In this document: piece by piece, positions 1 through 21,937 of the stretch | Layout of the letters: the number at the start of each line of letters is the position of its first letter | Numbering within the stretch: the first letter of the stretch is position 1 | Source of the DNA: Adineta ricciae | Lineage: Eukaryota > Rotifera > Eurotatoria > Adinetida > Adinetidae | Reading direction: 5' to 3' | NCBI GenBank assembly: GCA_905250025.1 | Contig: CAJNOJ010000182.1 | Coordinates: forward strand, 150,243 to 214,242 | Length of the DNA: 64,000 nucleotides | The notes under the pieces: generated by a model | The model's input: the letters and a program-made list of their open reading frames with translations, nothing else | What the model was told of the DNA's origin: nothing | Databases searched by the model: none | Program-made: the position numbers and the translations under genes

Positions 1-2485
1 GGGAGCGTCGTCATCGACAATCAAATCTAATGGGTACTATACTGAATGTTCATTCGGGTGATTGGATTGTTCGAGAAGCAGGCATTGGTGCTGGTATTGA
101 TTCATATTATGAATACTTATTTAAAGCTTATGTTCTCTTGGGAGAAAAGAATACGGATTATTTAGCTCGTTTTCAAGAACACTATTCCTCGATAATGTCC
201 TACGTTCAACAAGGTGTTGCTATGGTTAATGTTCACATGCATCAACCGTATCGATTAGCGAAAAATCATATGGATGCTTTGTTAGCGTTTTGGCCTGGCT
301 TACAAGTCATGACAGGCGACTTAAAACCGGCGATTGAATTGCACGAAATGTTGTATCAAGTTGTGAAGAAGCATAAATTTTTACCTGAAGCATTTACAAC
401 TGACTATAGAATACATTGGAATTCCCATCCGTTGCGACCTGAATTTGTCGAGTCCACTTATTTTATCTATAAAGTAAAGAAAAAGCATAATTGAAGGAGT
501 AAAAATTACACATCGTTCTTTCGTAGGCCACTGGTGATCCTCATTATCTCGAAGTCGGACGTACAATATTGAACAATTTAGAAGAACACGCTCGTGTTCC
601 ATGTGGTTATGCGGCTATATCCGATGTATCAACTGGTCAACAAGAAGACCGAATGGATTCATTTGTCTTAGCAGAAACATTCAAATATCTTTATCTGCTA
701 TTCGATACAAGTCCACATCGTTATATCGATGTGGATCAATTCGTGTTTACCACCGAAGCTCATATCCTTCCGTTAGATTTATTCGCGTTTCATGTTAACG
801 AAACATTACAGAAAGAATTCGATCGACAGACTTTATTATCTGCACGTCTGTATGAACAAAAGAATCTTTCGTTAACTGAACGATTCAATGAAAAACGAGC
901 GAAGTATAATCAATGTCCTGCGATGGACGATCAATTTCAATCGCACCAGTACAAGGAGAAATTGAGAAGAAATATTCGTGGCGATCAGGATATGACGGAA
1001 ACAGTAACAACGATTTCGGCGATTGAACCAGAAAAACGATCGAAAAAGTAAGAGAGGATCATTTTGAAATTGAAGTACGAATAAAAAGTCCTTTCTAGTG
1101 AATCTCACAATCGCTTGACAGCTTTGGAATTTTCTGCTGTTAACCCTGATCATATCACTCAATTATCGAATATGGGTATACAAATTCAAACAATGACGGA
1201 TGGCCGTAAGAATTGAAAAGATCTTCATTTGACGTAAACAACTTCTCTTCTCTATGCAGGTGTTCAATTGATCCACAATTCAGCCACTGCCGCGTCACAT
1301 GAAGATGCAGAAGATGGTCTTTTGTTCATTCAAGAAATGATAGACATGATGAAGAATATCAATGGATTAAACCCGACATCATCTGAGTCTAATTATCATG
1401 TTCCATTATCGATTATTCCCTTGATAGATAACCCCGAAGGAAAACGGCATAGTTTCGCCGTTGGATCTGCTCAATTTGGAAAACAATTGCACGGCAAATC
1501 AGGAGTAAATCAATCTTGAGTAAAGATTAGAAATTCCCATTTTTTACTTCTAGATATTCGCTCAACTATATGTTGCTCAACCTTTCTCTGCTTGTTCGCA
1601 GCTGTTCTCTTCCCATTTTCTTCACTCACGTATTGGTATTGTTCGACGTGGCGATTGCATGTTCATTGAGAAAGCCCGTCGATTGGAAAATGTTCATGCT
1701 ATTGGAGGAATCGTCATTGATCATAATACTTCGTTGAAATCGTCCACAAATGGCATATTCTCCATGACTGGTGATGGAAATAATGATGTTCATATTCCCG
1801 TTGTGTTAATGTTCAAGGAAGAAGCATTTCATTTGTTACATTTGCTAACAAAATACCCGAATTTGATCGTTTATGTTGGAGACGAACGTTGCTTGAAAGA
1901 AAGTTTCTATGAACAACTCGAACTTCTGGAAAGCCTCGTTGAACCGTGGAATCAAATAACAAATCGCTGGATTTATGGACAAATGTCATTGTTCAAAAAG
2001 AGATCTACCTGCCCGATGGTGCCAGAGAAGCTAAAAGAATTCGAGCAGAAAATTCAATCACAACTAGAAACAATAGACACGCCGCCTGTCGTTCAATTTG
2101 AACATTTTACTGATACTAGTACGGAATCGAAATTATGTGAAATTCAAAATTACATACTAATACTTTTGTTTTGCTATTTCTTATTTTAGACGATAACAAA
2201 TCTGTTGACGAAATCACGTCACAATTATTCGCCAGTCTCAATCTGACAACTGCAAATCTCGGTGGTCAATTATATAACATTGAAGCGTATCGTTCAGCAT
2301 TGAATAAAGTAGTTCGTGCTGCCATAGTTTCTGCGAATCAATCTCTCGCAGCAAATAATACCGCTACGCAGAACCAAGAACAAGAAGTGGAAATTCCTGT
2401 AATCATCGAGCAAGAACCATTGACGACAACAGCGGACACTAGGGAATATACAGAGAAAAGATCCGAGTCCGAAGAGAAAAGCTGA
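1..2485 (+). CDS. EDEM3: EDEM3-like ER mannosidase, block A copy, 5' truncated by the window
   Basis: This is the partial copy of the gene that is complete at 11770-15213. The window begins inside exon 6, with codon phase starting at base 3. Exons by splice-site matching are 1-473, 527-1047, 1099-1205, 1260-1504, 1554-2136 and 2190-2485. It encodes the second half of the GH47 alpha-mannosidase domain, including the HPLRPE and FTTEAH motifs, followed by the protease-associated (PA) domain that marks EDEM3 among EDEM proteins, and a Gln/Glu-rich tail. The family trims mannose from misfolded glycoproteins in the ER lumen for ER-associated degradation. No nonsense codon or frameshift is visible, and protein differences from the block B copy are few and concentrated near the C-terminus. 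Confidence 0.85.
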
Positions 2486-2857
2486 GTGACAGAGAAATAC
2501 GTTCATATTTCTCGCCGGTGATAATAAATTATGTTATATTTTGTTTTCAGTTTTGCTAGTCGTCGAGTTTGCAGTTCGATTGAAATAACCTACCAAGAGA
2601 TCTTCTACAACTAAATAAAAATGTATATGACTATTGTTTCACAGTTATTCCTTTCGTTTCCTTCTCTTTTCTTTTGTTACTAATAAACACCTACGCAACC
2701 GATCTATTTCTTTTCTCAAAGGAAACCTATATCAATTTAATCTCTAGTACGTTTTCTAGCATTAATTTAGCGTGTAAAACACAAACAAAGACAAAAAGAA
2801 AAGAACTACATGTACAATAAAACGCAACAACAAAAAAAACGAAGGAGTCATTTTTGA
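2486..2857. other. Convergent 3' spacer
   Basis: This spacer separates the EDEM3 stop (+) from the stop of the Cys-rich gene (-). AATAAA hexamers at about 2523 and again near 2611 are plausible EDEM3 poly(A) signals. Nothing else is recognisable. The matching spacer in block B is 15214-15593. Confidence 0.6.
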
Positions 2858-4038
2858 CTATTTATAGATTTGTTTCATCAGTTTGTTAATAGTTTCTGAA
2901 TCTAATCGATGCACACCAGATAAATGTCGCCGAATACTTTTTCGAGTGATTTCTTGCGTTGAACATGGCATATTTGTAATAGGATCGTTGATTGCCAATG
3001 GACATTTGACTTTATGAAGTGGATCAAACAATGTCAATGTCGTATCAGTTGTTATCGAAAACAATTTACTAGTAGATGGATCTTGTTGATAAATCATTGC
3101 TTTTACCAGACGAATCGAGACTTGACGTTTGAAGCCATGTTTGGAATTGAAATGTTGATACAAACAAATCTTTTTAGTTGGACCTTTTGATTTCGTACAC
3201 AATTGATGTTGATGGTAGTCTTGAAATAAACCGAATGCGCCATCGAATGTTAGTGGACATTCGCCGAGATATGAACCGCAGGACATTGATTGGCCGAGTT
3301 TTTTCTTAGATGTTCTTCGTTTAGTTTTTATATCGTAATCTGAATCGTCTGTTCTATTGTTCTGATCCACATAATCATACTCTGGTTTAAAAAAAAACAA
3401 AAAAGAAGTTTTTGACACTTTACTGCAATGTCTTACCTTCATCACTGAATTCTTCGGTTGTATTTACATTGAAATCTAAATAACAGATTTTGAACAATAA
3501 TTGGTAAAATATCCTTTATTTCAATCGCACTTTCATCGTTTTTCCAGGGTGTTATTTCATTCCACCATTCAATTTCTTTTGGCTGACTAGATATTTCAAA
3601 TCGTTTAATCAATTCAAATCTTTCCCAAAAGAATTCTTACATATGTGACGTAACTATTTCTTTATTTTCATCGCCATCGAAATAATTCGAATTTTTCATC
3701 GATAACGGTACTTCGGATAGGTGTTGATCTTCTTGATTAGTACATTCTTTGAGTAGATCAGGAACATTTTTTTGTTCTTCAGCATCGGAATCAAGTGTAA
3801 CAGCTAAACGATATCATACGACATGTTTGCACTCTTAACAAAACGACATACTTGACGACGAATGGTCCAAATCTTCTTTCTCATCGATTCCCGATGTCTG
3901 ATGAGAAAGCCAATGGCGATAACAGAGCATATGTTCACAATGAGTTTTGCATAGAAAAACATGAATGGGTGGAGCACCCAATACGGGAAAACATGTTGGT
4001 TGTGTGCAATATCCCTTACCAGAGAGCATCTTTGGCAT
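2858..4038 (-). CDS. Uncharacterised cysteine/histidine-rich protein, block A copy
   Basis: I do not recognise the family. The model joins five exons on the minus strand: 3852-4038, 3641-3803, 3531-3586, 3437-3475 and 2858-3381. It totals 969 nt, or 322 codons plus stop. The N-terminal 70 residues carry paired cysteines and histidines (CTQPTC, then CKTHC and CYRHW) that look like a treble-clef or B-box-like zinc site. The middle is acidic and low in complexity. The C-terminal half holds a conserved block with GECPLTFDGAF, the string YHQHQLC, and a Cys/His spacing that could bind a second metal. Every intron is under about 65 nt. The exon structure is identical in block B, which supports it as a real gene. 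A nuclear or ubiquitin-related role would be guesswork. Confidence 0.6.
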
Positions 4039-4329
4039 GATAAATATAGTCGGATATGTTTCACGTGTTCGTTTTTGTGCCACATATATATGGCGACAAA
4101 ATAGATGACGGACGACAGGAAAGGAAAAAAGGATTAGAGAAAAGTGAACAAATAGTTGAAAACGTTTCGAGACTGAAATTTTGAATTCGTTGTTTTGTAC
4201 CTGGAAGAGTCGGAGATACTTTTTCGTTTTTCTTTTCTATATTTTTATTCCAGAATTCTCATGTCATGTGAAGTTATATTCAAACAAAGATCGCAAAAAA
4301 TATAATGAAAATCTTCAATATAAACACTA

Positions 4330-5896
4330 TCACTGTTCTTCTTTCAGATTTCGATCAATAGTGATAACACGTTCGTCAATGAAACTGTTTTCATCAGTAT
4401 CGTCGTCGTTATCGGTTAAACTCAATTCTTGTCCAGTGGTTTTCGTCGGTTGAGATTGTTGAATAAATTCTGTTAATGTGCGTTCGGTACAGCGAGCTAT
4501 AAAACGTATCAGTGGCCGTAAATCGCCATCATTTGCTTGATCAAGACAAGCGTAATAGGTTAAACGTTCTGTTTTCTTAATAATCACAGGTGGAAAACCG
4601 GATCTCATTAAAATCAAATTCATTAACAAACGACCTGTTCGGCCATTTCCATCAATAAACGGATGAATATAAACAAATTTGTAATGTGCGATAGCAGCTA
4701 ATTCAATTGCATGAAGATCTCTCGTATCTTCTAATGAATTTAACCAAACTAGGAAATCTTCCAGATATCCGTCGACTTCACTGGCAGCCGGAGGAACAAA
4801 TGATCCAACATAAACTTGATGTTCACGTAACTGACCGGCTTGAACGGGATCGACAAAACCTAAAACTCGTCGGTGAATTTCGAAGATATCTTCGCGTTTG
4901 ATCGAACCGAGACGATTCACTAATGTACAATTAACGTATTGCAAAGCTAAGTCGAGTCCAAGAACTTCTTGCTGCTCAATTAGAGATTTTCCACCAATGG
5001 CCATGCGTGTTTCAACAATATGCCGCGTTTCACGCAGATTCAACGTATTTCCTTCGATGGCATTCGAATGATAAATGTGTAAATAATAAGCATCACGTTT
5101 AGCACGTCGTAAATAAGGATTTGTGTCCGGAATTCGATAGAGTTCTTGAAGAAGATTATCAATGAACGTAAAATGTTTCTGATCGATTTCTTCAACTAAT
5201 GGTAATGTGCGTTTTTTCAGTTCTAAAGCACGAGGATTGGTTGGTTGATTGAAAAGTGCGCGCGTGTATAAACTATCAGCATGTATCAAATCTTTATGAT
5301 GATATTCGAGAAATTGACCATATTCGACGAGAATTTCGGAATTATAAGGATCGAGTGTTAGAGCATGTTCGAAAACTTTGCGTGCCTTTTCAAACTTGTT
5401 TTCAACGATTAAACGAAGCGCGAGATGAAGTGCAGTTTCTGCTTCTTGTCGAAGATCTTGAAAAACACATAACAGAAGTCGATTGTCAGAAAAAAAACCT
5501 AACGAAAAACTTACCACTAGACACGTTCTTTTCTTTAATCTGGTCTTTGGTATACTTGCGTTCTGTATTTGAAGGTTCGCGTTGACGATGCTGTGCTTGC
5601 AATTCATTCTTCTTCGCTGATGAACATTGCACAGATGTAACGCCCGCTGGGAAAAAAACATGACGGGAAGTGAGTAAACTGAGCGACGATGATGATGATG
5701 ATATCGATGAAAATGGTGGCGATGAAACTTTAATTAATAAATGTGGGATTAAAATATTAACAATAATTGTAGTGGTAAATGAAAGAAGAAGAAATAAACA
5801 TAACGTTGTAAGAGATTGACGGACGTCAATCGAAGGACAACATTGTGCCAGTCGGTGAAAACTCCGTCGAAATATAATTCGATAAAATAGTGTCAT
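4330..5896 (-). CDS. FICD: FICD/HYPE-like protein adenylyltransferase, block A copy
   Basis: Two exons are joined by a 58-nt intron (exons 5515-5896 and 4330-5456; 502 residues). An N-terminal hydrophobic segment makes it a type II ER membrane protein, followed by TPR repeats and a Fic domain. The Fic motif HPFIDGNGRTGR is intact, as is the autoinhibitory helix motif SNAIEGN. The inhibitory glutamate in that motif marks FICD-type enzymes, which AMPylate and de-AMPylate the ER chaperone BiP. The intron in this copy is one base longer than in block B. That shifts the frame if it is not spliced, which is direct evidence that it is an intron. EDEM3, another ER quality-control gene, sits in the same block. 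Confidence 0.9.
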
Positions 5897-6115
5897 TGAT
5901 TATGATTCTATTCAAGACGGTAGCGGAGAACATGATAGATAATATTTAATGGTAAAGAGATGAATAAGCTACGTGAAGATCATGACTATCTTCAAGAATT
6001 TTATGAATCTAAAAAAAGACAAACAAAAACATTTTCTTTACTAACATTAGAAAAATCGATCTAGTAAACACAGGTGGATGTTAACTGAATGATTCTAGCA
6101 GAAACGTAGGCCTTT

Positions 6116-6703
6116 TTATCTAGCTTTTTGTTGTTCGAATAATTCTTGAATTTGTTGCGTTGCTGTTACTTGTGGAAATTCCATTTCAGTCAGATCGTTG
6201 TCGGGATATGTTCGCAATGTTCGATCAGTTGGTTTATTTGTAAATGGTGTCCATATGCCTTGAGTCGACGGTGAATCCGTATGCATTTTCTTTAATAGTC
6301 TCCATTGTGGATCACCTTGTTGTGTCAACAAACTGTGTATCCACCAATTCACATGCTGTCGATCACAATTTGATAGTGGAATCCATTGACGATCACCACT
6401 TAGATATTCTCCGATTAGATTTGGTGCTCGGTGACGACGTGGTTGAACATATATAACAACATACGGATGTTGACGAGCAAATGCTGTTAAATCATTAGCA
6501 ATCCATTCTCGTGTGCCGTACGATGTACGAAATTCTTTACACACTTGAATCGTCAAGCGTTGCAGTTGACAAACATATCGCGAACCGACACCATTCTGCA
6601 GATGAGTTGAGATGTACTTTCCAGGTGTTATTTCATCGAATGAATGAAACGAACGAATCGATTGTTTTGGTAATGAAACGAAACGACGGAGTAGCTGAAA
6701 CAT
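6116..6703 (-). CDS. mrpl43: Mitochondrial ribosomal protein mL43, block A copy
   Basis: This encodes 195 residues with the L51/S25/CI-B8 thioredoxin-like fold of mL43. Diagnostic stretches include NGVGSRYVCQLQRL, a central FARQHPYVVIYV strand-loop and the C-terminal HTDSPSTQGIWTPFTNKP. The open frame extends 14 codons further to an ATG at 6745. I chose 6703 because a polypyrimidine tract and CAG acceptor (tttctgtattcag) lie immediately before that ATG, suggesting a 5'-UTR intron. The basic N-terminus (LLRRFVSLPKQ) also fits mitochondrial import. The protein belongs to the large subunit of the mitoribosome. Confidence 0.88.
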   Translation of the reverse strand: MFQLLRRFVSLPKQSIRSFHSFDEITPGKYISTHLQNGVGSRYVCQLQRLTIQVCKEFRTSYGTREWIANDLTAFARQHPYVVIYVQPRRHRAPNLIGEYLSGDRQWIPLSNCDRQHVNWWIHSLLTQQGDPQWRLLKKMHTDSPSTQGIWTPFTNKPTDRTLRTYPDNDLTEMEFPQVTATQQIQELFEQQKAR

Positions 6704-6800
6704 CTGAATACAGAAAGAAACTATATATCGTGCGAAAAATAGCAAGATGTCTGATGTGAAGCGTATGACTGGTACGGAACTTAATCCAACAGTTAAATAA

Positions 6801-6801
6801 N
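6801..6801. other. Single ambiguous base N at a probable contig join
   Basis: The homology between blocks A and B stops exactly here, and the H2B reading frame is cut at the same base. Two unrelated breakpoints on one undetermined base are best explained by an assembly join. Confidence 0.85.
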
Positions 6802-6906
6802 TCGTCGACGTCTAGCTTTTTTATCAGAGCCTTTGGCACCCGATGAACCTTTGGTTGTCTTTGTAACGGCTTTTTTTGAGCCTTTTGATGGAGTTTTTGG
6901 TGGCAT
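6802..6906 (-). CDS. Histone H2B, N-terminal 35 codons only
   Basis: The reading frame starts MPPKTPSKGSKK and ends in KKARRRR, which is the typical basic N-terminal tail of H2B, just where the histone fold would begin. It is cut by the N at 6801, and what follows is the spacer upstream of mL43, so the histone-fold part is missing from the assembly here. The gene is divergent from H2A with 284 bp between the start codons, the usual metazoan H2A/H2B arrangement. I regard it as a real gene truncated by assembly rather than a pseudogene. Confidence 0.85.
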
Positions 6907-7676
<770 letters not shown>

Positions 7677-7728
7677 ATATTCTTGACCTAGTCATATCAT
7701 AACATCAAGATATTCTAAAAAACCCAAC

Positions 7729-7744
7729 AGCCCTCTTTAGGGCT
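7729..7744 (+). promoter_or_regulatory. Histone mRNA 3' stem-loop
   Basis: The sequence agccctctttagggct forms a perfect 6-bp stem with a 4-nt loop, 52 nt after the H2A stop. It matches the shape of the replication-dependent histone processing signal bound by SLBP. A purine-rich stretch (aaggagaaaa, about 7769-7779) lies where the U7 snRNA target would be. Confidence 0.8.
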
Positions 7745-8950
7745 AAAAAACTTTAAATTCATACATGTAAGGAGAAAATATTAAACATATAAAACGTTTT
7801 GTTGTCCTGTATTCGTCAAATAAATCTTCGATGTGTCAAATATCACAATAATGACTGGACAGATTCGTAAACGACGACAAACGTCCACGAGATGTTTGAA
7901 TTTCAATCAAACGTATTGCTGATGAATAGAGTCAGTGTTAAATTAGTCGAAAGGTTGGAAATCAAGGCGATATGTTCCAGTAGAAAAGAGCAAAAGACAA
8001 TTAATTCGATGATAAAACTGATCAATATGTTGAGAACAAGTAATAGCATTGAATAACTTAAAATTCATTCATGGTTTATGCGAACTAAAACACAATGCAT
8101 AGATTGAAAATTGTTTGACAAAAAGCAAAACATCAACTTTCTTATCTATAAACTTCAAACGAAAGATACGCGAACTACAACTATTTACTTTGAGTTAGAA
8201 CGAAAAGAAAAGACAAACAATGTCTGTAACAAACGTGTTGTTTTGTACAATTATAAATGAATATGTGAATTATAGAAAATGGTATCCTCGAGTTCATGCA
8301 GTTCGAAAGATACCAATTATTATTTTCAGCGTGTTCCTTCTTCAGCATAGATCAAGGCAAAGAATCCATAGATCTTTACTTTAGTTAAGCGTGCGTCCAA
8401 AGAATTACCTCGCTAAAGTGCAAAACATAATCTCGATTAGGGTAAAATTCAAAATCTGATAGAGAAAAACAAATTGAAGGATAGAGTAATTATGTAAGGA
8501 TGCCTTTCAATGGCCAGATTATTTTCCCTATGGTGGTAACAAACTAAACGTAACAGTGACACAGATTTCAAGCAAGATATGATCTACTGAGGATGCTTCT
8601 GAGATGAGGTGCACTGATTAGTTATTCCCTTTGCCGAACCTTGGTAACTAAAGCTAATTCTTATCAGATATTAAGCAATATATATCCTTTTTTTCTTTAT
8701 AACCTGTAATTTTTCTGAAATAATTTACAAAGAAAGGTTTTTCTTTTATAGAATCAATGTCATCAACAGGATTATTTCTTCCAAAAGAATAACGAATGTA
8801 ACCTATAAACATCCTCGTCAAAATAGCATTTAGCTTTTCGTGATAAGAACTTTTCTATAGAAAGAATATTCATTTGGGAAACATCTCTCCAATATTTCCC
8901 ATTGTAAACTCGACATTTAATCAAATGCTCAAATAATTCAGGACCCATTA
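7745..8950. other. Intergenic stretch, no gene recognised
   Basis: The stretch is AT-rich. Scattered short open frames on both strands show no family motif, and none is supported. A minus-strand frame at 8772-8963 has protein-like composition, but I cannot link it to anything. Confidence 0.5.
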
Positions 8951-10010
8951 GTGACATTCGCACTCAATAGTCAAATCAATCAATGATGATTTATACCAAG
9001 TAAATCAAAAGATTCTCATCTTGGGCTTTTTGGAATTTCTCAGAAATACTTTTACTTACCCTCAAAGAGAACTTCGGTTCAATACATCATGTTGTATCTA
9101 TTCACTTTGCGTATCAGTAATCGATATCATAAATCTATCATTGAACGCATCTACAAATTATCCAACTATTCAGTACAATACTGATATTCCGTGGTATTCA
9201 TTCTCGATCCTTGCACCAACGGCCTAGCGTCACTCTATATGCTCCTATGCTATTCGATCTATAATACGGCATATTTTGCGGTTCGACTCAACTAGAAACA
9301 ATAAGTATTTTGTACATGGTACTGATCGGTCTAAATCGACCTTTATTGATGCTCACTTATCAGAATATTAGCCGAAATCGTCGACGAGTAGTACGTACAA
9401 TAGTTTGAAATCTTTCGTTTTCGAACGTTTCGTTTATTAATATTCGATTTTTATGGTAATGGAATTGTCATCAATTGACGAAGCGCTCGAACTCCATTCA
9501 TCATAATGATAGTAACTCAAGTGCTGGTTACTAGTTTCTTTTCTTTACAACATAGATTATCATCTATATGTGCTTTACAATTTCCGGAAAAGGTTTCGAA
9601 GGTGTAGGCCATTGGTCAATTCTAATGTTTGCCGTTTTTTTCTGAGTAATGATTTGTATTACATAAGTAACGTCAAATCCTTTTATCTATCACTCTTAAC
9701 TTGCAGTTTATTTCGAAAAATCTTTGTCAAAAGTTTCGGTAAATTATTACCATGGCGTATCTTAGAATAACTTGTACCCGGTACATCCGTCAATACTGTA
9801 ACCAGAACGGCTCGTTTCAATCAACAGCAGCCAGAGATGTATATAGATCTTCTGAAGACATGTCGATGCCTTTTTTGTTTTGTTCGTCAATATATTCGAG
9901 GATAACTATGCAATTTATTTTAACACATATTGACATAGTCTGCGAGTTATTCACAGAAGCATTGAACTTGGTCTGTACCCGCGTTGAGATCATTGATGAG
10001 CTTTAGTGTT
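8951..10010 (+). pseudogene. Possible decayed rhodopsin-like GPCR
   Basis: A short open frame at about 9021-9227 reads like the first transmembrane helices of the large rotifer GPCR family: a TFTYPQRELRFNTSCCIYSL-type segment followed by a hydrophobic stretch. The frame is then lost. Further plus-strand fragments to about 10010 contain basic loop-like runs but no continuous seven-helix frame. An intact GPCR lies about 430 bp downstream on the same strand, so a dead tandem relative is plausible. The evidence is weak. Confidence 0.3.
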
Positions 10011-10442
10011 TATTAAAATTATGTTTGCAGCAAAAAAAATAATCTTGCAAGCGACTTTCAAAGATATTTTCTTGCGATTAACATAAGCAGGGAAGAATCC
10101 AGAATTCCTTGTAGAGTTTCATCCTTTTCTGCTAGATTTTGCTTCGAGATTAGTAAAGAAGGCGAGGATTTATTAAATCCGAGCATCAGAACACCTTGCC
10201 TAATGCTCAATTATCATTGGCAGAGTCTGCTAAATGTTTTACCAAGTGTTTCTGTCCGAAGCGATTCTAGACGAAAAAAAATGTAATGAAAGAAAACAAA
10301 TGCTATTTTTGTTCCATCTTAAAGACATCTTATGACAAAAAGCCTTACAAAAGGAAGATATTTTGCATATTTAATCCCACGTAGGAGAAAAATATTCAAT
10401 TATAGATACTAAGAAGGTTATATAGAAGTTGTTACTTAGACA

Positions 10443-11342
10443 ATGTTCACAAATATGTTCTACACGATCAATTTTTCCATAGAGATCTTTTTCGCGATTG
10501 TTGCGTTAATGTTTGCAGTCACGACACTAGTTCTTTTCATCATTAATCGACAATGTCGTACTATCACCAATCTATTATTATGCAATACCGTCACTGCTGC
10601 CATTCTTTACTACGTCCCATTTCTGTTTTCAGTAGCTTACAGTCTCAGCGAAGGCTGGTCTTCGTATCAACCAGCATGTATCCTGCGTGGTTATATATTT
10701 ACTGTTGCTTGCACTGCGCTGTGCTACTCATACTTGATTCAGACAATTAGTCGATTATTTTTTTGTGTATTTTTTAAATGTAAAAAATTACAAACCTGGT
10801 TCGTGCATTGGATCATGATTCTTATTAATTGGATTCTGGCTTTTGTCATACCACTGGTTCCTATAATCTATGATGGGTATATCTTTGAAGACGAATCTCG
10901 TCTTTGCATTCCAACAACGAAAAATATCCCGTCAGCACTATACGTGATGTGTCTTGCGTATATTTTGCCAACATGTGCACTAGCGGTGATTTATGGTATT
11001 ATTCTTCGTCATATACGTCAATCTTCGCGTCGAATTGTGAGTTTTGTAGCGGAAACATCAAAGGCAATTGTGACGACGAATCAAACGTTGCCGAATTACA
11101 AGCGTGAAATCGAAATTCTGAAGAAAGTTTTTGTTTTATTGAATATTTTAATATTTGCTGGATCATTTTATGTCATATCCACGTTCTGGAATTGGATTCA
11201 ACCACAAGCTGCACCAAAATTTCTGTGTTCAGTTGCTATTGAAATGATAACAATTTTCATTGCAGTGATGCTAGTTACTCTGTTTTTCATGAGTAAAGAT
11301 CTGAGAATTGCTTTAGTGAATTACATAAGCTGTGTACATTGA
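10443..11342 (+). CDS. Rhodopsin-like GPCR, single exon
   Basis: The protein has 299 residues and seven hydrophobic helices. TM1 spans about 8-33, TM2 about 43-65, TM3 about 83-108 with a cysteine at its start, TM4 about 122-142, TM5 about 164-188, TM6 about 227-250 and TM7 about 258-283. The N-terminus is very short and the DRY position reads ISR, so it is a divergent class A-like receptor of the expanded rotifer chemosensory or peptide type. It is intronless, unlike most genes here. The ligand cannot be inferred. Confidence 0.75.
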   Translation: MFTNMFYTINFSIEIFFAIVALMFAVTTLVLFIINRQCRTITNLLLCNTVTAAILYYVPFLFSVAYSLSEGWSSYQPACILRGYIFTVACTALCYSYLIQTISRLFFCVFFKCKKLQTWFVHWIMILINWILAFVIPLVPIIYDGYIFEDESRLCIPTTKNIPSALYVMCLAYILPTCALAVIYGIILRHIRQSSRRIVSFVAETSKAIVTTNQTLPNYKREIEILKKVFVLLNILIFAGSFYVISTFWNWIQPQAAPKFLCSVAIEMITIFIAVMLVTLFFMSKDLRIALVNYISCVH

Positions 11343-11769
11343 CGTTGACTTTCAGATGTTTGAGTTAACTAAATATATATAGAGTTCTCTTCTTCATCTG
11401 TACTAAAGTGACATCTCTATGAAAGCCTTGCTGTACAAGGCACGATTCGTTTATGTTGATGCCCATTAGAATCAACCAAAATATTTTCGTTCGATGTACA
11501 AGCGAAGATTATCATTGACTGATAAATCAAACGAAAACGCAAATATCCTTTTTTCCTCTTCTCATCAATTCATTCCGTAGACAGACAGTCCAACATGTGG
11601 TGCATTTGCTCTTACTAATCAAATGAATCTATAATATTGTTTCTCTTCTGTTTTTCTATCAGTATAAATTACGTTCAGAACACGTATGTGATCGAATTGT
11701 CCTACTGTAGCACTTTTATATGCAAACTGATCATGTTTCTTTTTTTGTTTTAAGTTTTAATCAAAGAAA
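11343..11769. other. Spacer before EDEM3
   Basis: This is 427 bp of AT-rich sequence between the GPCR stop and the EDEM3 start. Nothing specific is visible beyond a T-rich tract just before the start codon. Confidence 0.4.
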
Positions 11770-14700
11770 ATGTGTGTCAAAATTGTCCAAGTCGTTTTCC
11801 TAATCTCCGCCATAATGGCAATGTCGCCTGAGGAAAAATCGAAACTTCGTGTACGAGTTCTCGATATGTTTAAGCATGGCTTTGGATCTTATATGGTAAG
11901 TCAATGCAGCTCGTGTTTCAAGTTTTTCTGTAAACTCGACGTAAATGTTTTCATATAGAAATACGCTTTTCCAGCTGATGAGTTAATGCCGTTGAGGTGA
12001 GAGTACAGAATGTTTGAAAAGACGATTACTTCTTGCTTTTGTAGTTGTAAAGGCCGATATCGTGGTTCTGAACCATCTCGAGGTGATATCGATGATGCTC
12101 TTGGAAAGTAAGCAAACATCTTTTCAATGAGTGGACAAATGAAACGCGTATGTATATTCTAGTTTCTCCTTAACACTTGTTGATAGCTTGGACACATTAG
12201 CGGTGAGTGATTGCCATCGTGGCTTGAATGTTGTCGGACATGGATTTTTGATTTAGGTGCTGGGAATGTTTGATGAATTCGAACACGCTGTTCGTCAAGT
12301 CATTCAACACGTCTCTTTTGATCGCGATGTTATTGTGTCTGTTTTCGAAACAAATATTCGGATGATTGGGTAATTTATTTTACAGGGTAGAAGACATTCT
12401 TGATTCTTTGTATAATGTTTAGTGGACTTCTCGGTGGTCACATCTCAGCTAAATATATCAATTCATATCATCCATTGCGCTTATCATGGTATCGTGATGA
12501 ACTATTGGTTTTAGCACATGACTTAGGCCTTCGACTGCTACCGGCTTTTAATACATCAAGTGGTTTGCCCTTACCACGTGTGAATCTTCGTCATGGAATC
12601 GATCTGACATTGTCGAAAAGTGACCGCGAGCGTTTCACTTGTACGGCTTGTGCTGGAACATTGATATTAGAATGGGCTACTCTCTCGCGACTGACGGGCA
12701 ACTATCTGTTCGAACAGTATGCCGATCGTGCGATGTCATATCTGTGGGAGCGTCGTCATCGACAATCAAATCTGATGGGTACTATACTGAATGTTCATTC
12801 AGGTGATTGGATTGTTCGAGAAGCAGGCATTGGTGCTGGTATTGATTCATATTATGAATACTTATTTAAAGCTTATGTTCTCTTGGGAGAAAAGAATACG
12901 GATTATCTAGCTCGTTTTCAAGAACACTATTCCTCGATAATGTCCTACGTTCAACAAGGTGTTGCTATGGTTAATGTTCACATGCATCAACCGTATCGAT
13001 TAGCAAAAAATCATATGGATGCTTTGTTAGCGTTTTGGCCTGGCTTGCAAGTCATGACAGGTGATTTAAAACCGGCGATTGAATTGCACGAAATGTTGTA
13101 TCAAGTTGTGAAGAAGCATAAATTTTTGCCTGAAGCGTTTACAACTGACTATCGAATACATTGGAATTCACATCCGTTGCGACCTGAATTTGTTGAATCC
13201 ACTTATTTTATCTATAAAGTAAAGAAAAACATAATTGAAGGAGTAAAAACTACACATCTTTCTTTCGTAGGCCACTGGTGATCCACATTATCTCGAAGTC
13301 GGACGTACAATATTGAATAATTTAGAAGAACACGCTCGAGTTCCATGCGGTTATGCAGCTATATCCGATGTATCGACTGGTCAACAAGAAGATCGAATGG
13401 ATTCATTTGTCTTAGCAGAAACATTCAAATATCTTTATCTGCTATTTGATACAAGTCCGCATCGTTATATCGATGTGGATCAATTTGTGTTTACCACCGA
13501 AGCTCATATCCTTCCATTAGATTTATTCGCGTTTCATGTTAATGAAACATTACAAAAAGAATTCGACCGACAGACTTTATTATCTGCACGCCTGTATGAA
13601 CAAAAGAATCTTTCGTTGACCGAGCGATTCAATGAAAAACGAGCGAAGTATAATCAATGTCCTGCGATGGACGATCAATTTCAATCGCACCAGTACAAGG
13701 AGCAATTGAGAAGAAATATTCGTGGCGATCAGGATATGACAGAAACAATAACAACGACTTCGGCGATTGAACCAGAAAAACGATCGAAAAAGTAAGAGAA
13801 GCTCATTTTGAAACTTAAGTACGAATAAAAGTCATTTCTAGTGAATCTCACAATCGCTTGACAGCTTTGGAATTTTCTGCTGTTAATCCCGATCATATCA
13901 CTCAGTTATCGAATATGGGTATACAAATTCAAACAATGACTGATGGCCGTAAGAATTGAAACGATTTTTATTCGATGTCAACAAATTCTCTTCTTTATTC
14001 AGGTGTTCAATTAATCCACAATTCAGCCACTGCCGCGTCACATGAAGATGCAGAAGATGGTCTGCTGTTTATTCAAGAAATGATGGACATGATGAAGAAT
14101 ATCAATGGATTAAACCCAACATCATCTGAGTCTAATTATCATGTTCCACTATCGATTATTCCCTTGATAGATAACACTGAAGAAAAACGGCATAGTTTCG
14201 CTGTTGGATCTGCTCAATTTGGAAAACAATTGCACGGCAAATCAGGAGTAAATCAATCTTGAGTAAAGATTGAAAATTCTCATTTTTTTACTTCTAGATA
14301 TTCGCTCAACTACATGTTGCTCAACCCTTCTCTGCTTGTTCGCAGCTGTTTTCTTCCCATTTTCTTCACTCACGTATCGGCATTGTTCGACGTGGTGATT
14401 GCATGTTCATCGAGAAAGCCCGTCGATTGGAAAATGTTCATGCTATTGGAGGAATCGTCATTGACCATAATACATCGTTGAAATCGTCGACAAATGGCAT
14501 ATTCTCCATGACTGGTGATGGAAATAATGATGTTCACATACCCGTTGTGTTAATGTTCAAGGAAGAAGCATTTCATTTGTTACATTTGCTAACAAAATAC
14601 CCGAATTTGATTGTTTATGTTGGAGACGAACGTTGTTTGAAAGAAAGTTTCTATGAACAGCTCGAAGTTCTGGAAAGTCTCGTTGAACCGCGGGATCAAA

Positions 14701-15213
14701 TAACAAATCGCTGGATTTATGGGCAAATGACATTGTTCGAAAAGAGATCTACCTGTCCAATGGTACCAAAAAAGCTAAAAGGATTCGAGCAGAAAATTCA
14801 ATCGCAACCAGAACCAATAGACACGCCGCCTATTGTTCAATTTGAACATTTTACTGATACTAGTATGGAATCGAAATTATGTGATTAATATTTTTCTTTT
14901 GCTATTTCTTATTTTAGACAATAACAAACCTGTTGACGAAATCACATCGCAATTATTCGCCAGTCTCAATCTGACAACTGCAAATCTCGGTGGTCAATTG
15001 CATAACATTGAAGCATATCGTTCAGCATTGAATAAAGTAGTTCGTGCTGCCATAGTTTCTGCGAATCAATCTCTCGCAGCAAATACTACCGCTACGCAGA
15101 ACCAAGAACAAGAAGTTGAAATTCCTGTAATCATCGAGCAACAACCATTGACGACAACAATGGACACGAGGGAATATACAGAGAAAAGATCCGAATCCGA
15201 AGAGAGAAACTGA
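11770..15213 (+). CDS. EDEM3: EDEM3-like ER degradation-enhancing alpha-mannosidase, complete (block B)
   Basis: The eleven-exon model is 11770-11895, 11959-11996, 12045-12107, 12163-12202, 12257-12369, 12423-13218, 13271-13791, 13842-13948, 14003-14247, 14298-14880 and 14918-15213. It stays in frame throughout and gives 975 residues, close to human EDEM3. A signal peptide (1-17) targets the ER. The GH47 domain carries the catalytic VFETNIR (Glu120), the glycine-rich [24 protein letters not shown] and the calcium-site FTTEAH (about 467-471). The protease-associated domain (about 684-790, with [10 protein letters not shown]) separates EDEM3 from EDEM1 and EDEM2. It trims mannose from misfolded glycoproteins for ERAD. 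Poly(A) signals AATAAA follow at 15250 and 15342. Confidence 0.92.
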
Positions 15214-15593
15214 GTGATAGAGAAATACGTTCATATTTCTTACCGGTGATAATAAATTATCTTATATTTTGTTTTCAGTTTTGCTAGTCGTCGAGTTTGC
15301 AGTTCGATTGAAATAACCTACAAAAAGATCTTTTACAACCAAATAAAAATGTATATGACTCTTGTTTCACAGTTATTCCTTTCGTTTCTTTCTCTTTTCT
15401 TTTGTTACTAATAAACATCTACGAAACCGATCTATTTCTTTTCTCAAATGAAACCTATATCAATTTAATCTCTAGTACGTTTTCTAGCATTATTTAGCGT
15501 GTAAAACACAAACAAAGACGAAAAGAAAAGAGCTACATATACAATAAAACGCAGCAAGAAAAATACGAAAAAGAAGGAAGGAGTTATCTTTTA
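15214..15593. other. Convergent 3' spacer (block B)
   Basis: This is the block B counterpart of 2486-2857. It holds two AATAAA signals for EDEM3 and nothing else recognisable. Confidence 0.6.
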
Positions 15594-16776
15594 CTATTTA
15601 TAGACTTGTTTCATCAGTTTGTTAATAGTTTCTGAATCTAATCGATGTACACCAGATAAATGTCGTCGAATACTTTTCCGAGTGATTTCTTGCGTTGAAC
15701 ATGGCATATTTGCAATAGGATCGTTGATTGCCAATGGACATTTGACTTTATGAAGTGGATCGAACAATGTCAATGTCGTATCAGTTGTTATAGAAAACAA
15801 TTTGCTAGTAGATGGATCTTGTTGATAAATCATTGCTTTTACCAGACGGATCGAGACTTGACGTTTGAAGCCGTGTTTCGAATTGAAATGTTGATACAGA
15901 CAAATCTTTTTAGTTGAACCTTTTGATTTTGCACATAATTGATGTTGATGATAGTCTTGAAATAAACCGAATGCTCCATCGAATGTTAGTGGACATTCGC
16001 CGAGATATGAACCGCAGGCCATTGATTGGCCGAGTTTTTTCTTAGTTGCCTTTCGTTTAGTTTTTATATCGTAATCTGAATCGTCCGTTCTATTGTTCTG
16101 ATCCATATAATCATACTCTGTTTAAAGAACAAAAAATGACTTTTTCACACTTTACTGCGATGTCTTACCTTCATCACTGAATTCTTCGGTTATATTTACA
16201 TTGAAATCTAAATAACAGATTTTGAACAATAATTGGTAAAACATTCTTCATTTCATAAGTCGTATTACTTTCATCGTTTTTCCAGGGTGTTATTTCATTC
16301 CACCATTCAATTTCTTTTGGCTGACTAGATATTTCAAATTGCTTAATCAATTCAAATCTTTCCCAAAAGAATTCTTACATAAGTAACGCAACTATTTCTT
16401 TACTTTCATCGTCATCGAAATAATTCGAATTTTTCATCGATAAAGGTACTTGAGATAGGTGTTGATCTTCTTGATTAGTACATTCTTTGAGTAGATCAGG
16501 AACATTTTTTTGTTCTTCAGCATCGGAATCAAGTGTAACGGCTAAGCGATATCATACGACATGTTTGCGCTCTTAACAAAACGACATACTTGACGACGAA
16601 TGGTCCAAATCTTCTTTTTCAACGATTTCCGATGTCTGATGAGATAGCCAATGGCGATAACAGAGCATATGTCCACAATGAGTTTTGCATAGAAAAACAT
16701 GAATGGGTGGAGCGCCCAACACGGGAAAACATGTTGGTTGTGTGCAGTATCCTTTACCAGAGAGCATCTTTGGCAT
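15594..16776 (-). CDS. Uncharacterised cysteine/histidine-rich protein, block B copy
   Basis: Exons are 16590-16776, 16379-16541, 16269-16324, 16169-16207 and 15594-16117 (322 residues), matching block A exon for exon. The start at 16776 is the first ATG in the frame that runs into the zinc-like Cys/His region (CTQPTC, CKTHCGHMLCYRHW). Introns are 45-61 nt. Compared with block A, substitutions are mostly conservative and all Cys/His positions are kept. The family is unknown to me. The arrangement of an N-terminal Cys/His module, acidic middle and C-terminal Cys/His module is the only structural hint. Confidence 0.62.
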
Positions 16777-17066
16777 GATAAATATAGTCGGATATGTTTC
16801 ACGTGTGCGTTTTTGCGCCACATATATATGGCGACAAAATAGATGACGGACGACAGGAAAGGAAAAAAGGAGTAGAGGAAAGTGAACGAATAGTGGAAAA
16901 CGTTTCGCGACTGAAATTTTGAATTCGTTGTTTTGTACCTGGAAGAGTCGTAGGTACTTTTTCGAAAGTTTTGGTATTTTTATTCCAGAATTCTCATGTC
17001 ATATGAAGTTACATTCAAACAAAGATCGCAAAAAAAATATAATGAAAATCTTCAATATAAACACTG

Positions 17067-18629
17067 TCACTGTTCTTCTTTAATATTTCGATCAATAGTG
17101 ATAACGCGTTCGTCAATGAAACTGTTTTCATCAGTATCGTCGTCGTTATCTGTTAAACTCAATTCTTGTCCAGTAGTTTTCGTCGGTTGAGATTGCTGAA
17201 TAAATTCTGTTAATGTGCGTTCGGTGCAGCGAGCTATAAAACGTATCAGTGGCCGCAAATCGCCATCGTTTGCTTGATCAAGGCAAGCGTAATAGGTTAA
17301 ACGTTCTGTTTTCTTAATAATCACAGGTGGAAAACCGGATCTCATTAAAATCAAATTCATTAACAAACGACCTGTTCGGCCATTTCCATCAATAAAGGGA
17401 TGAATATAAACAAATTTGTAATGTGCAATAGCAGCTAATTCAATTGCATGAAGATCTCTCGTATCTTCTAATGAATTTAACCAAACAAGGAAATCTTCCA
17501 GATATCCGTCGACTTCACTGGCAGCCGGAGGAACAAACGATCCAACATAAACTTGATGTTCACGTAACTGACCGGCTTGAACGGGATCGACAAAACCTAA
17601 AACTCGTCGATGAATTTCGAAGATATCTTCGCGTTTGATCGAACCGAGACGATTCACTAATGTACAATTAACGTACTGCAAAGCTAAGTCGAGTCCAAGA
17701 ACTTCTTGCTGTTCAATTAGAGATTTTCCACCAATGGCCATGCGTGTTTCAACAATATGCCGCGTTTCACGCAGATTCAATGTATTTCCTTCGATGGCAT
17801 TCGAATGATAAATGTGTAAATAATAAGCATCACGTTTAGCACGTCGTAAATAAGGATTTGTGTCCGGAATTCGATAGAGTTCTTGAAGGAGATTATCAAC
17901 GAACGTAAAATGTTTCTGATCGATTTCTTCAACCAGTGGTAATGTGCGTTTTTTCAGTTCTAAAGCACGAGGATTGGTTGGTTGATTGAAAAGTGCGCGC
18001 GTGTATAAACTATCAGCATGTACCAAATCTTTATGATGATATTCGAGAAATTGACCATATTCGACGAGAATTTCGGAATTGTAAGGATCGAGTGTAAGAG
18101 CATGTTCGAAAACTTTGCGTGCTTTTTCAAACTTATTTTCATCGATTAAACGGAGCGCGAGATGAAGTGCAGTTTCCGCTTCTTGTCGAAGATCTTGAAA
18201 AACACACATAACAGGAGTCGATTGTCGGTAGAAAACTAACGAAAACTTACCACTAGACACGTTCTTTTCTTTAATTTTGTCTTTGGTATACTTGCGTTCT
18301 GTATTAGAAGGTTGGCGTTGATGATGCTGTGCTTGCAATTCATTCTTCTTCGCTGACGAACATTGCACAGATGTGACGCCGGCTGGAAAGAACACATGAC
18401 GGGAAGTGAGTAAACTGAGCGACGATGATGATGATATCGATGAGAGTGGTGGCGATGAAACTTTGATTAATAAATGTGGGATTAAAATATTAACAATAAT
18501 TGTAGTGGTAAATGAAAGAAGAAGAAATAAACATAAAGTTGTAAGAGATTGACGAACATCAATCGAAGGACAACATTGCACTAGTCGATGAAAACTCCGT
18601 CGAAATATAATTCGATAAAATAGTGTCAT
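17067..18629 (-). CDS. FICD: FICD/HYPE-like protein adenylyltransferase, block B copy
   Basis: Exons are 18251-18629 and 17067-18193, giving 501 residues. Residues 28-51 form a signal-anchor helix, about 130-200 hold TPR-like repeats, and the Fic domain follows. The Fic motif spans His391-Arg402 (HPFIDGNGRTGR) and the inhibitory motif SNAIEGN lies at 257-263 with Glu261. FICD enzymes sit in the ER membrane facing the lumen and switch BiP activity by reversible AMPylation. The 57-nt intron has no stop and is a multiple of three, so the unspliced frame is continuous through it. The block A intron is 58 nt, which shows that splicing is the normal state. Confidence 0.92.
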   Translation of the reverse strand: MTLFYRIIFRRSFHRLVQCCPSIDVRQSLTTLCLFLLLSFTTTIIVNILIPHLLIKVSSPPLSSISSSSSLSLLTSRHVFFPAGVTSVQCSSAKKNELQAQHHQRQPSNTERKYTKDKIKEKNVSSGKFSLVFYRQSTPVMCVFQDLRQEAETALHLALRLIDENKFEKARKVFEHALTLDPYNSEILVEYGQFLEYHHKDLVHADSLYTRALFNQPTNPRALELKKRTLPLVEEIDQKHFTFVDNLLQELYRIPDTNPYLRRAKRDAYYLHIYHSNAIEGNTLNLRETRHIVETRMAIGGKSLIEQQEVLGLDLALQYVNCTLVNRLGSIKREDIFEIHRRVLGFVDPVQAGQLREHQVYVGSFVPPAASEVDGYLEDFLVWLNSLEDTRDLHAIELAAIAHYKFVYIHPFIDGNGRTGRLLMNLILMRSGFPPVIIKKTERLTYYACLDQANDGDLRPLIRFIARCTERTLTEFIQQSQPTKTTGQELSLTDNDDDTDENSFIDERVITIDRNIKEEQ

Positions 18630-18849
18630 TGATTATGATTCTATTCAAGACGGTAACGGAGAACATGATAAATAATATTTAATGGTAAAGAGACGAATAA
18701 GCTACGTGAAGATCATAACTATCTTCAAGAATTTTATAAATCTAAAAAAAAAACAAACAAAAACATTTTCTTTACTAACATTAGAAAAATCGATCTAGTA
18801 AACACAGGTGAATGTTAACTGAATGATTCTAACAGAAACGTAGGTCTTT

Positions 18850-19437
18850 TTATCTAGCTTTTTGTTGTTCGAATAATTCTTGAATTTGTTGCGTTGCTGT
18901 TACTTGTGGAAATTCCATTTCGGTCAGATCGTTGTCGGGATATGTTCGCAATGTTCGATCAGTCGGTTTATTTGTAAATGGTGTCCATATGCCTTGAGTC
19001 GACGGTGAATCCGTATGCATTTTCTTTAATAACCTCCATTGTGGGTCACCTTGTTGTGTCAATAAACTGTGTATCCACCAATTCACATGCTGTCGGTCAC
19101 AATTTGATAGTGGAATCCATTGACGATCGCCACTTAGATATTCTCCGATTAGATTTGGTGCTCGATGACGACGTGGTTGAACGTATATCACAACGTACGG
19201 ATGTTGACGAGCAAATGCTGTTAAATCATTAGCAATCCATTCTCGTGTGCCGTACGATGTACGAAATTCTTTACACACCTGGATCGTCAAGCGTTGCAGT
19301 TGACAAACATAGCGCGAACCGATACCGTTCTGTAGATGAGTTGAGATGTACTTTCCGGGTGTTATTTCATCGAATGAATGAAACGAACGAATCGATTGTT
19401 TTGGTAATGAAACGAAACGACGGAGTAGCTGAAACAT
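18850..19437 (-). CDS. mrpl43: Mitochondrial ribosomal protein mL43, block B copy
   Basis: The encoded protein has 195 residues and is almost identical to the block A protein. The start at 19437 is chosen because the acceptor-like tttctgtattcag directly precedes the ATG in both copies. It contains the conserved mL43 core (RYVCQLQRL, PYVVIYV) and the C-terminal TPFTNKP. It lies 220 bp downstream of FICD's start, on the same strand. It is a large mitoribosomal subunit protein. Confidence 0.88.
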   Translation of the reverse strand: MFQLLRRFVSLPKQSIRSFHSFDEITPGKYISTHLQNGIGSRYVCQLQRLTIQVCKEFRTSYGTREWIANDLTAFARQHPYVVIYVQPRRHRAPNLIGEYLSGDRQWIPLSNCDRQHVNWWIHSLLTQQGDPQWRLLKKMHTDSPSTQGIWTPFTNKPTDRTLRTYPDNDLTEMEFPQVTATQQIQELFEQQKAR

Positions 19438-19663
19438 CTGAATACAGAAAGAAACTATATATCGTGCGAAAAATAGCAAGATGTCTGATGTGAAGCGTAT
19501 GACTGGTACGGAATTTAATCCAACAGTTAAATAATGGAATGGTCGATAGGTGTCGGTAGATTATTTTATTGATTTCAATGTACATAGAATTCTACTATAC
19601 TGTAAAAACTAGAAACTAAAAAAGGCATTATTGAACTGTTACAAAAAAAACGGGAAAATATTC

Positions 19664-20602
19664 TCAAAAAACAACCAATCGACTTTCATATCGATTCAGA
19701 TGAACACTGTTAAATTGTCTTTTCAGAACGTCCTGATAATTCCATTCTTCACTTAATTCCTGAGACCGATGAATGTATAAATCAAATTTAAATTGATTAA
19801 GTTTTCTTAAATGACTAGAAATCATCGATAAAAGCCAATCATAATACTGTAAATGATGCATGACACTAGCATTGATCGAGATTGACCGAGATATTCTCAA
19901 CTGTTCGAGATTAGGTACACATAACAAATAACTTTCTAAAATCTCATCATCCCACGGGTAATCGTCGTACTTCATATTGATGAACAATCGCTTCAGATTG
20001 ATATGCTTGATAAAATTTGTCTCGATTTTCGATCTTGTTGGTAATTTAAATTTCAGAATCGATAAATTTGGACATGCAAGCAGAACCGATGTGTAAATCG
20101 ATGCATTAATGTCATTGAACCTTAAAAATCGTATAGATAACGATCGTGTCCAATCTTGCGGTGCACTTGGCGATCTCATTCGAGATATATAACAACATTT
20201 CAGAGAAGGAAAAACATCCGAGAAGATCTTAGTACGGAGATCCGGCATATAAAACGGATGGATTTTATGATAAATAGCTAAATATTCTAAATTCGGCAAT
20301 GTATGTCCATTGAATTGCACAAGAAATTCTTCGGTAACGTAGTCGAGAATGAGACGGCGAATGTTTGGAAAGCAGACGAGTTTATCTGGAATCGTTTTCT
20401 CAATAATCAATGTGCGAATGTATGGATACGCTTGAGTTTGATTGTCTTGTTCGTTCGTCGAGTACGTCAGATGAGTTAAAGACTGAATGAGATAATTGAA
20501 GCGAAAGTTAAGATTATAAAAAGCTTGGAAAAGTTGCGGAGCTTTGAGATATTTGAACAATTCAATTAATAACTCATTGGGTAAACGTTCTAAGCCAGAC
20601 AT
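19664..20602 (-). CDS. F-box protein 1 of the array
   Basis: A single exon encodes 312 residues. The F-box lies at about 3-48 (GLERLPNELLIELFKYLKA). Degenerate leucine repeats follow, then the array's C-terminal signature YYDWL...NQFKFDL and YESRLVVF. F-box proteins bind SKP1 and present substrates to an SCF ubiquitin ligase, with the C-terminal repeats reading the substrate. Just upstream of the ATG is an acceptor-like ttctag followed by ATTAGTTGT, also found before member 3, which suggests a conserved 5'-UTR intron. Confidence 0.8.
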   Translation of the reverse strand: MSGLERLPNELLIELFKYLKAPQLFQAFYNLNFRFNYLIQSLTHLTYSTNEQDNQTQAYPYIRTLIIEKTIPDKLVCFPNIRRLILDYVTEEFLVQFNGHTLPNLEYLAIYHKIHPFYMPDLRTKIFSDVFPSLKCCYISRMRSPSAPQDWTRSLSIRFLRFNDINASIYTSVLLACPNLSILKFKLPTRSKIETNFIKHINLKRLFINMKYDDYPWDDEILESYLLCVPNLEQLRISRSISINASVMHHLQYYDWLLSMISSHLRKLNQFKFDLYIHRSQELSEEWNYQDVLKRQFNSVHLNRYESRLVVF

Positions 20603-20698
20603 ATGTACAACTAATCTAGAAAAAGAAAGAAATATACATGGAAAGTTTGTAATTCATGAAATATGTTTATTCAAAAAATAATTTCCAGAAAACTTCAT

Positions 20699-21793: not shown

Positions 21794-21937
21794 CGAAATG
21801 GTGATAAGAATAGAATGTCAGTAGGAGTGCTGAGCGAAAGACAGTTGATCACTATCGTGTTTCGACTTTCAATAGAATTACATAAATATCTAAAGATGAT
21901 CTAGAAGAAACAAATATACAGGTAAACATTTGCATTT

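What the first reader, a model, noticed from the sequence alone, without database searches (positions are those of the whole stretch)
1..19534. Two allele-like copies of a four-gene block on one scaffold
The sequence shows 6.8 kb of colinear, same-orientation homology (1-6800 and 12746-19534) at about 3-5% divergence, with all reading frames intact in both. In bdelloid genomes, homologous (allelic) blocks commonly differ by a few percent, while ohnologous copies differ far more. Finding both on one scaffold means either a true tandem or segmental duplication or an uncollapsed haplotype joined by scaffolding. Early bdelloid assemblies reported such same-chromosome allele pairs as evidence against meiosis, so which case this is matters.
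Basis: partly seen in the sequence, partly recalled or inferred. Interest (0 to 1): 0.75.

Follow-up and report, generated by a model that had tools for sequence, protein, structure and literature searches.

The report
Falsely duplicated alleles at assembly gap
The apparent tandem copy of a gene block in this rotifer genome is most likely the two parental versions of one locus laid end to end by mistake at an assembly gap, so it is an ordinary assembly artefact rather than a real duplication.

Summary
The homology is real but larger than reported. One N lies at window 6801. Copy 1 runs from 6.2 kb upstream of the window (C182:144052) to 6800, the last base before the N; copy 2 runs from 6802, the first base after it, to 19534. 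So about 13 kb on each side of the gap match, touching the gap on both sides. Copy 2's H2B gene is cut by the gap after 35 codons; copy 1's is whole. The flanks have no second allele-like copy in the assembly. Ohnologous contig C4 carries the matched genes of the block once, between matching flanks. Coding divergence (4.8%, dS 0.16) fits published Adineta ricciae homologs (median 4.55%, mean Ks 0.135; PMC5916493). In the same assembly, 3 of 5 single-N gaps seen, this one included, join sequences that repeat each other up to the N; 9 of 400 random points do, all 9 in minisatellite arrays. Verdict: a heterotype (haplotypic) false duplication. A genuine tandem duplication with an assembly gap at its junction is not formally excluded, because no reads were available.

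The parts
1..6800 (+). Right-hand part of copy 1 (whole copy = C182:144052-157042, 12,991 bp, starting upstream of the window); ends on the last base before the gap
   Evidence: BLASTN self-comparison and MAFFT alignment
6801..6801 (.). Single N: the scaffold gap joining two contigs; the only N in the window
6802..19534 (+). Copy 2 (12,733 bp), beginning on the first base after the gap; its end corresponds to the end of copy 1 at 6800
6802..6906 (-). Histone H2B cut off by the gap after 35 codons; complete in copy 1's region (127 aa, C182:143773-144156, minus strand)
   Evidence: named by eye from its sequence
7191..7676 (+). Histone H2A with a 39-residue tail beyond LLPKK (bdelloid-type), copy 2; copy 1 at C182:144436-144921
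   Evidence: Pfam PF16211 and PF00125; dS 0.058
10443..11342 (+). Rhodopsin-type GPCR-like gene, copy 2
   Evidence: Pfam PF00001 E 3.6e-14; dS 0.187
12400..15213 (+). GH47 (EDEM3-like) alpha-mannosidase-like gene, copy 2; in copy 1 it runs from upstream of the window to 2485. One gene is inferred from several ORFs
   Evidence: Pfam PF01532 on two ORFs; PA domain only at E 0.063, on copy 1's ORF 1659-2157; the EDEM3 label is recalled and inferred
15594..16106 (-). Unnamed gene, copy 2 (copy 1 at 2858-3370)
   Evidence: no Pfam match; dS 0.164
17067..18629 (-). FICD-like TPR+Fic protein, copy 2 (copy 1 at 4330-5896); the ORF difference between copies lies in an inferred short intron
   Evidence: PF02661, PF13428; alignment
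18850..19479 (-). Mitochondrial ribosomal L51/S25/CI-B8-domain gene, copy 2 (copy 1 at 6116-6745)
   Evidence: PF05047 E 2.7e-6; dS 0.152

Best explanation
Two contigs that represent the two allelic haplotypes of the same locus were joined end to end with a one-N gap instead of being merged. Contig A ends at window 6800 and contig B starts at 6802. The last 13.0 kb of A and the first 12.7 kb of B are the two alleles, so the locus appears twice in tandem. Shown: the match touches the gap on both sides, the flanks have no second allele-like copy, the ohnologous region has the matched genes once, coding divergence is at the published homolog level, and two other one-N gaps in the assembly also separate sequences that overlap. 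Inferred: that the copies are alleles, that read depth is halved, and that no molecule spans 6801. Which program made the join is unknown.
For: The only N in the window sits exactly at the copy boundary. Copy 2's H2B stops at the N; copy 1's is complete. Flanks (5.0 kb right, 3.7 kb left) have no second ~95% copy in the assembly; two 10-kb stretches elsewhere show none either, though in those two searches the self-match was not listed. C4:737652-785560 is colinear with both flanks and has H2B/H2A, the GH47 gene and the Fic gene once. Nine clean coding segments, 1547 codons: 4.83% different, dN 0.020, dS 0.162, against A. ricciae homologs at median 4.55% and mean Ks 0.135 (passages of PMC5916493). 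At both single-N gaps of C85, 221 bp left of the N is repeated right of it (100% and 98.6%) while C67 has it once. Random-point control: 9 of 400 points show abutting repeats of at least 200 bp, all 9 inside minisatellite arrays. Ko et al. name gaps between duplicated pairs on one scaffold as a primary characteristic of false duplications (passages of PMC9516828).
Against: Two of the five single-N gaps seen (both on C179) show no overlap within the flanks held, so one N does not always mean an overlap; neither does the one 10-N gap seen. The overlap here (13 kb) is far longer than the 221 bp at C85. A true tandem duplication with an assembly gap at its junction would give the same geometry. 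No reads, depth or second assembly were available.
Confidence: 0.93

Rival explanations
1. A genuine old tandem segmental duplication of about 13 kb, whose junction happens to be the place where the assembly broke.
For: Direct orientation and adjacency; copies under purifying selection, dN/dS 0.12; geometry is the same as for overlapping contigs.
Against: Needs the only N of the window, and the only single N in C182 as fetched (242 of its 214,242 bases were not fetched), to fall exactly at the junction. dS 0.16 would have to coincide with the homolog level. C4 has the matched genes once. Unmerged overlaps occur at two other single-N gaps.
Confidence: 0.05
2. Real physically linked alleles on one chromosome (the structure once proposed for Adineta vaga as incompatible with meiosis).
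For: Allele-level divergence on one scaffold.
Against: Same points as above. Of 25 same-scaffold homologous blocks in the 2013 A. vaga assembly 23 were palindromes, and many collinearity breaks spanned scaffold gaps (passages of PMC5916493). Here the arrangement is direct and sits at a gap.
Confidence: 0.01
3. Chimera created by whole-genome amplification of the sequenced DNA.
For: If the assembly is ARIC003, its DNA was whole-genome amplified (passage of PMC7943196).
Against: A chimera formed from one molecule would not carry 6.3% substitutions across 13 kb, and the junction would be sequenced through and not be an N.
Confidence: 0.01

Closest known systems
Heterotype false duplication (haplotypic duplication) in genome assemblies: PMC9516828, PMC10548655, PMC8178825 (passages of each)
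   Same: Two allele-like copies adjacent on one scaffold, separated by an assembly gap, with allele-level divergence
   Different: Read-depth, k-mer and linked-read criteria could not be tested here
Same-scaffold homologous blocks in bdelloid assemblies (A. vaga 2013: 2 tandem, 23 palindromes; A. ricciae 2018: 2 tandem), PMC5916493 (passages)
   Same: Colinear allele-level gene blocks linked on one scaffold of a bdelloid; tandem orientation as in both A. ricciae cases
   Different: Whether this locus is one of those two A. ricciae cases could not be checked; here a gap at the junction is shown

Membership tests
Heterotype false duplication (criteria of PMC9516828) | Assembly gap between the duplicated pair on the same scaffold | tested here: met
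   N at 6801 exactly between the copies
Heterotype false duplication (criteria of PMC9516828) | Haploid (half) read depth on both copies | not testable with these tools
   no reads available
Heterotype false duplication (criteria of PMC9516828) | Discordant linked or paired reads across the join | not testable with these tools
   no reads available
Heterotype false duplication (criteria of PMC9516828) | One-copy (heterozygous) k-mers in reads | not testable with these tools
   no reads available
Allelic (homologous) pair in A. ricciae | Divergence at the published homolog level and not at ohnolog level | tested here: met
   CDS 4.83%, dS 0.162 over nine segments against median 4.55% and mean Ks 0.135 for homologs, mean Ks 1.267 for ohnologs (PMC5916493); that the species is A. 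ricciae is itself inferred
True tandem segmental duplication | Continuous sequence across the junction | tested here: not met
   The junction is an N
Palindromic allele pair (A. vaga 2013 type) | Inverted arrangement of the two copies | tested here: not met
   Direct orientation
Bdelloid H2A variants (PMC2642717) | C-terminal tail of 28-43 residues beyond LLPKK and no SQ(E/D)-phi end | tested here: met
   39 residues, ending GGEKA; counted by eye

The most novel reading that the evidence does not exclude
A genuine old tandem duplication of an H2B/H2A-GPCR-EDEM3-FICD-ribosomal-domain segment, or two alleles physically linked on one chromosome, has been kept with its genes under purifying selection in a bdelloid rotifer.
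Probability: 0.06. Interest if true: 0.5.

Novelty: not a real feature. Interest (0 to 1): 0.12.

Why it matters
False tandem copies at one-N gaps would inflate gene-family counts and counts of linked alleles in bdelloid genomes, which bear on whether these animals could do meiosis. Scanning every one-N gap of this assembly for matching flanks would show how many more there are.

Tried and rejected
Palindrome: rejected, direct orientation. Amplification chimera: rejected on divergence and the N. Frame damage as a sign of decay: the FICD ORF looks broken in copy 1, but the indels lie in a stretch bounded by GTAAGT and CAAG, read as a short intron. In one search two segments (the H2B fragment and 14900-15213) were read out of frame; H2B was redone in frame, the other was left out. 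The 128-bp exact match at the start of copy 2 could hint at a shared k-mer branch point, but most of it is conserved H2B coding sequence, so I put no weight on it. The 10-N gap at C182:69216 shows no abutting overlap. The 19-kb search of the window's right end was inconclusive for allele copies: 39 of 258 candidates were scored. Identification of the scaffolder failed: PMC7943196 section 17 (read whole) does not say how A. ricciae was scaffolded. That some scaffolders write one N for overlapping contigs they cannot merge is recalled; [quoted passage not shown] Simion et al. 2021 is not held. Flot et al. 2013 was not opened and is known here only through passages of other papers.

Full report
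WHAT IS THERE. The window is C182:150243-214242 of a 130.46-Mb assembly in 1033 contigs. Self-comparison confirms the reported match, 1-6800 with 12746-19534, 94.7% identical over 6821 columns, and shows a single N in the window, at 6801. With the sequence upstream, the match grows to two blocks: window -3538..6800 with 9215..19534 (92.3%, 10,435 columns) and -6190..-3705 with 6802..9211 (88.6%, 2,499 columns). So copy 1 is C182:144052-157042 and copy 2 is C182:157044-169776. Copy 1 ends on the last base before the N; copy 2 begins on the first base after it. A global alignment has 13,098 columns, 11,826 matches, 800 mismatches (6.3%) and 472 gap columns. Per 500 columns the substitutions range from 1.6% to 14.3%, and the last 98 columns have 1.0%.

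GENES. Copy 2 carries, in order: H2B (cut), H2A, a 7-transmembrane receptor gene, a GH47 gene (EDEM3-like; the PA-domain match is weak and was made on copy 1's ORF), an unnamed gene, a TPR-Fic gene (FICD-like) and a gene with a mitochondrial ribosomal L51/S25/CI-B8 domain. Copy 1 has matching segments for these. Its H2B, of 127 residues, is complete, extending left of the homologous block, and an H4-like ORF lies further upstream (H2B and H4 named by eye). Copy 2's H2B stops at the N after 35 codons. Of ten coding segments compared, nine were clean; one, the main FICD part whose range runs into the inferred intron, was set aside (on its own 2.78% different, dS 0.108). The nine give 1547 codons, 4.83% different, dN 0.020, dS 0.162, dN/dS 0.12; single segments range from dS 0 (H2B fragment) and 0.058 (H2A) to 0.207.

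WHICH ORGANISM. GC of the 304 kb first held is 36.5%. Contigs 128, 129 and 130 are 283.9, 277.3 and 281.9 kb (so not strictly sorted) and the last is 10.1 kb. The published A. ricciae ARIC003 assembly has 135.6 Mb, 4302 sequences, N50 283.8 kb at L50 129, GC 35.5% (Table 1 passages of PMC7943196). I infer that G000 is ARIC003 without contigs under about 10 kb; this was not proven.

WHY AN ARTEFACT. First, the N falls exactly on the copy boundary. Second, the surroundings are represented once: the right flank (5.0 kb) and left flank (3.7 kb) have no second allele-like copy, only short matches, several of them to histone genes. Of the block, two parts were searched, window 6802-12746 and 1000-2000: the only long matches are the two C182 copies, apart from pieces under 0.75 kb on C4 and at histone genes on other contigs. 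Two other 10-kb stretches also showed no allele-like copy, but there the self-match was not listed, so they are weaker. Third, C4:737652-785560 matches both flanks of C182 in order at about 68-87% identity and has the matched parts of the block (H2B/H2A, inverted; the GH47 gene; the Fic gene) once within the 90 kb fetched. Fourth, the divergence is that of A. ricciae homologs, median 4.55% and mean Ks 0.135, not of ohnologs, mean Ks 1.267 (passages of PMC5916493).

IN-GENOME CONTROL. I fetched seven further loci with histone-like matches on C179, C116, C85, C67, C31, C15 and C9, picked from hits without knowledge of gaps; C179 was then extended on both sides because a gap had been seen there, and the extension held a second gap. 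With the window, the rest of C182 (less 242 bases) and 90 kb of C4, 349 kb in all, five single-N gaps and one 10-N gap were seen. At three of the five single-N gaps, the finding's own included, the left and right sides repeat each other right up to the N: 13 kb at C182, and 221 bp at each of two gaps on C85 (100% and 98.6%), where C67 has the sequence once. At the two gaps on C179 no overlap was found, with flanks of 4.6 and 10.4 kb, and of 8.0 and 7.0 kb. The 10-N gap shows none abutting. As background, 400 random points on C182 (more than 30 kb from the finding's gap) and C4 gave 9 with abutting repeats of at least 200 bp, 4 of them at 88% identity or more; all 9 lie in minisatellite arrays found by TRF on C182. 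How many of the other 391 lie in such arrays was not counted. A first run of 200 draws gave 8 by a looser rule, but skipped draws were left in its denominator, so I do not use it. Putative allelic pairs on different contigs differ by 5.6% (C179/C116, 1,596 columns) and, in three pieces of C85/C67, by 9.0%, 0.2% and 7.1%; that they are allelic is inferred. The 0.2% piece of C85 lies between its two single-N gaps, which suggests that sequence of C67's haplotype was set between pieces of the other.

LITERATURE. Ko et al. [quoted passage not shown] Nowell et al. 2018 (passages, PMC5916493) found 25 same-scaffold homologous blocks in the 2013 A. vaga assembly (23 palindromes, 2 tandem), only 2, both tandem, in A. 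ricciae, and noted that many collinearity breaks span scaffold gaps. A later A. vaga assembly had a single palindrome (passages of PMC7749112). Van Doninck et al. 2009 (passages, PMC2642717) sequenced four histone-cluster fosmids in each of two bdelloids, forming two co-linear pairs, which fits one locus with two alleles plus an ohnologous pair. A. vaga assemblies are known for uncollapsed haplotypes (passages of PMC8178825 and PMC10548655).

LIMITS. No reads, depth or second assembly could be examined. The geometry alone cannot separate overlapping contigs from a real tandem duplication with a gap at its junction; the case rests on the gap, the single-copy surroundings, the allele-level divergence and the recurrence of the pattern at other gaps.

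Noticed in passing
C85 (locus L038):557-999 and 1667-2109: Two further single-N gaps (L038:778 and 1888), each with exactly 221 bp repeated on both sides; the equal length suggests an assembler or scaffolder parameter. The piece between them is 99.8% identical to C67, its neighbours 91-93%.
   Followed up: partly
C179:31564 and 34983 (loci L040 and L036): Two single-N gaps without flank overlap; relative to C116 the second lacks about 1.85 kb.
   Followed up: partly
C182:144436-144921 and C4:745121-745603: Both ohnologous regions carry an intact long-tailed H2A beside H2B-like sequence, inverted on C4; in the A. vaga and P. roseola histone clusters of PMC2642717 only one of the two co-linear pairs has an H2A.
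   Followed up: partly
window 61890-62280: A roughly 390-bp element matching at least 35 other places in the assembly, up to 99% identical, with short internal inverted repeats; possibly a mobile element or its terminal repeat.
   Followed up: no
window 39625-41285: Minisatellite (TRF: 51-bp period, 22.9 copies, 75% match at window 40034-41136), with arrays 63-66% similar at about C182:17.5-22.7 kb.
   Followed up: no
window 19664-22441: Three neighbouring minus-strand ORFs that look related; the first has a sub-threshold F-box-like match, E 0.008.
   Followed up: no
window 33213-33882 and 34601-35280: Tandem pair about 69% identical, both matching C4 at about 766609-767271.
   Followed up: no
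C182:67712-69158 and 80064-81510: Dispersed direct repeat of 1.45 kb, 94.5% identical, beside the 10-N gap at C182:69216-69225.
   Followed up: no
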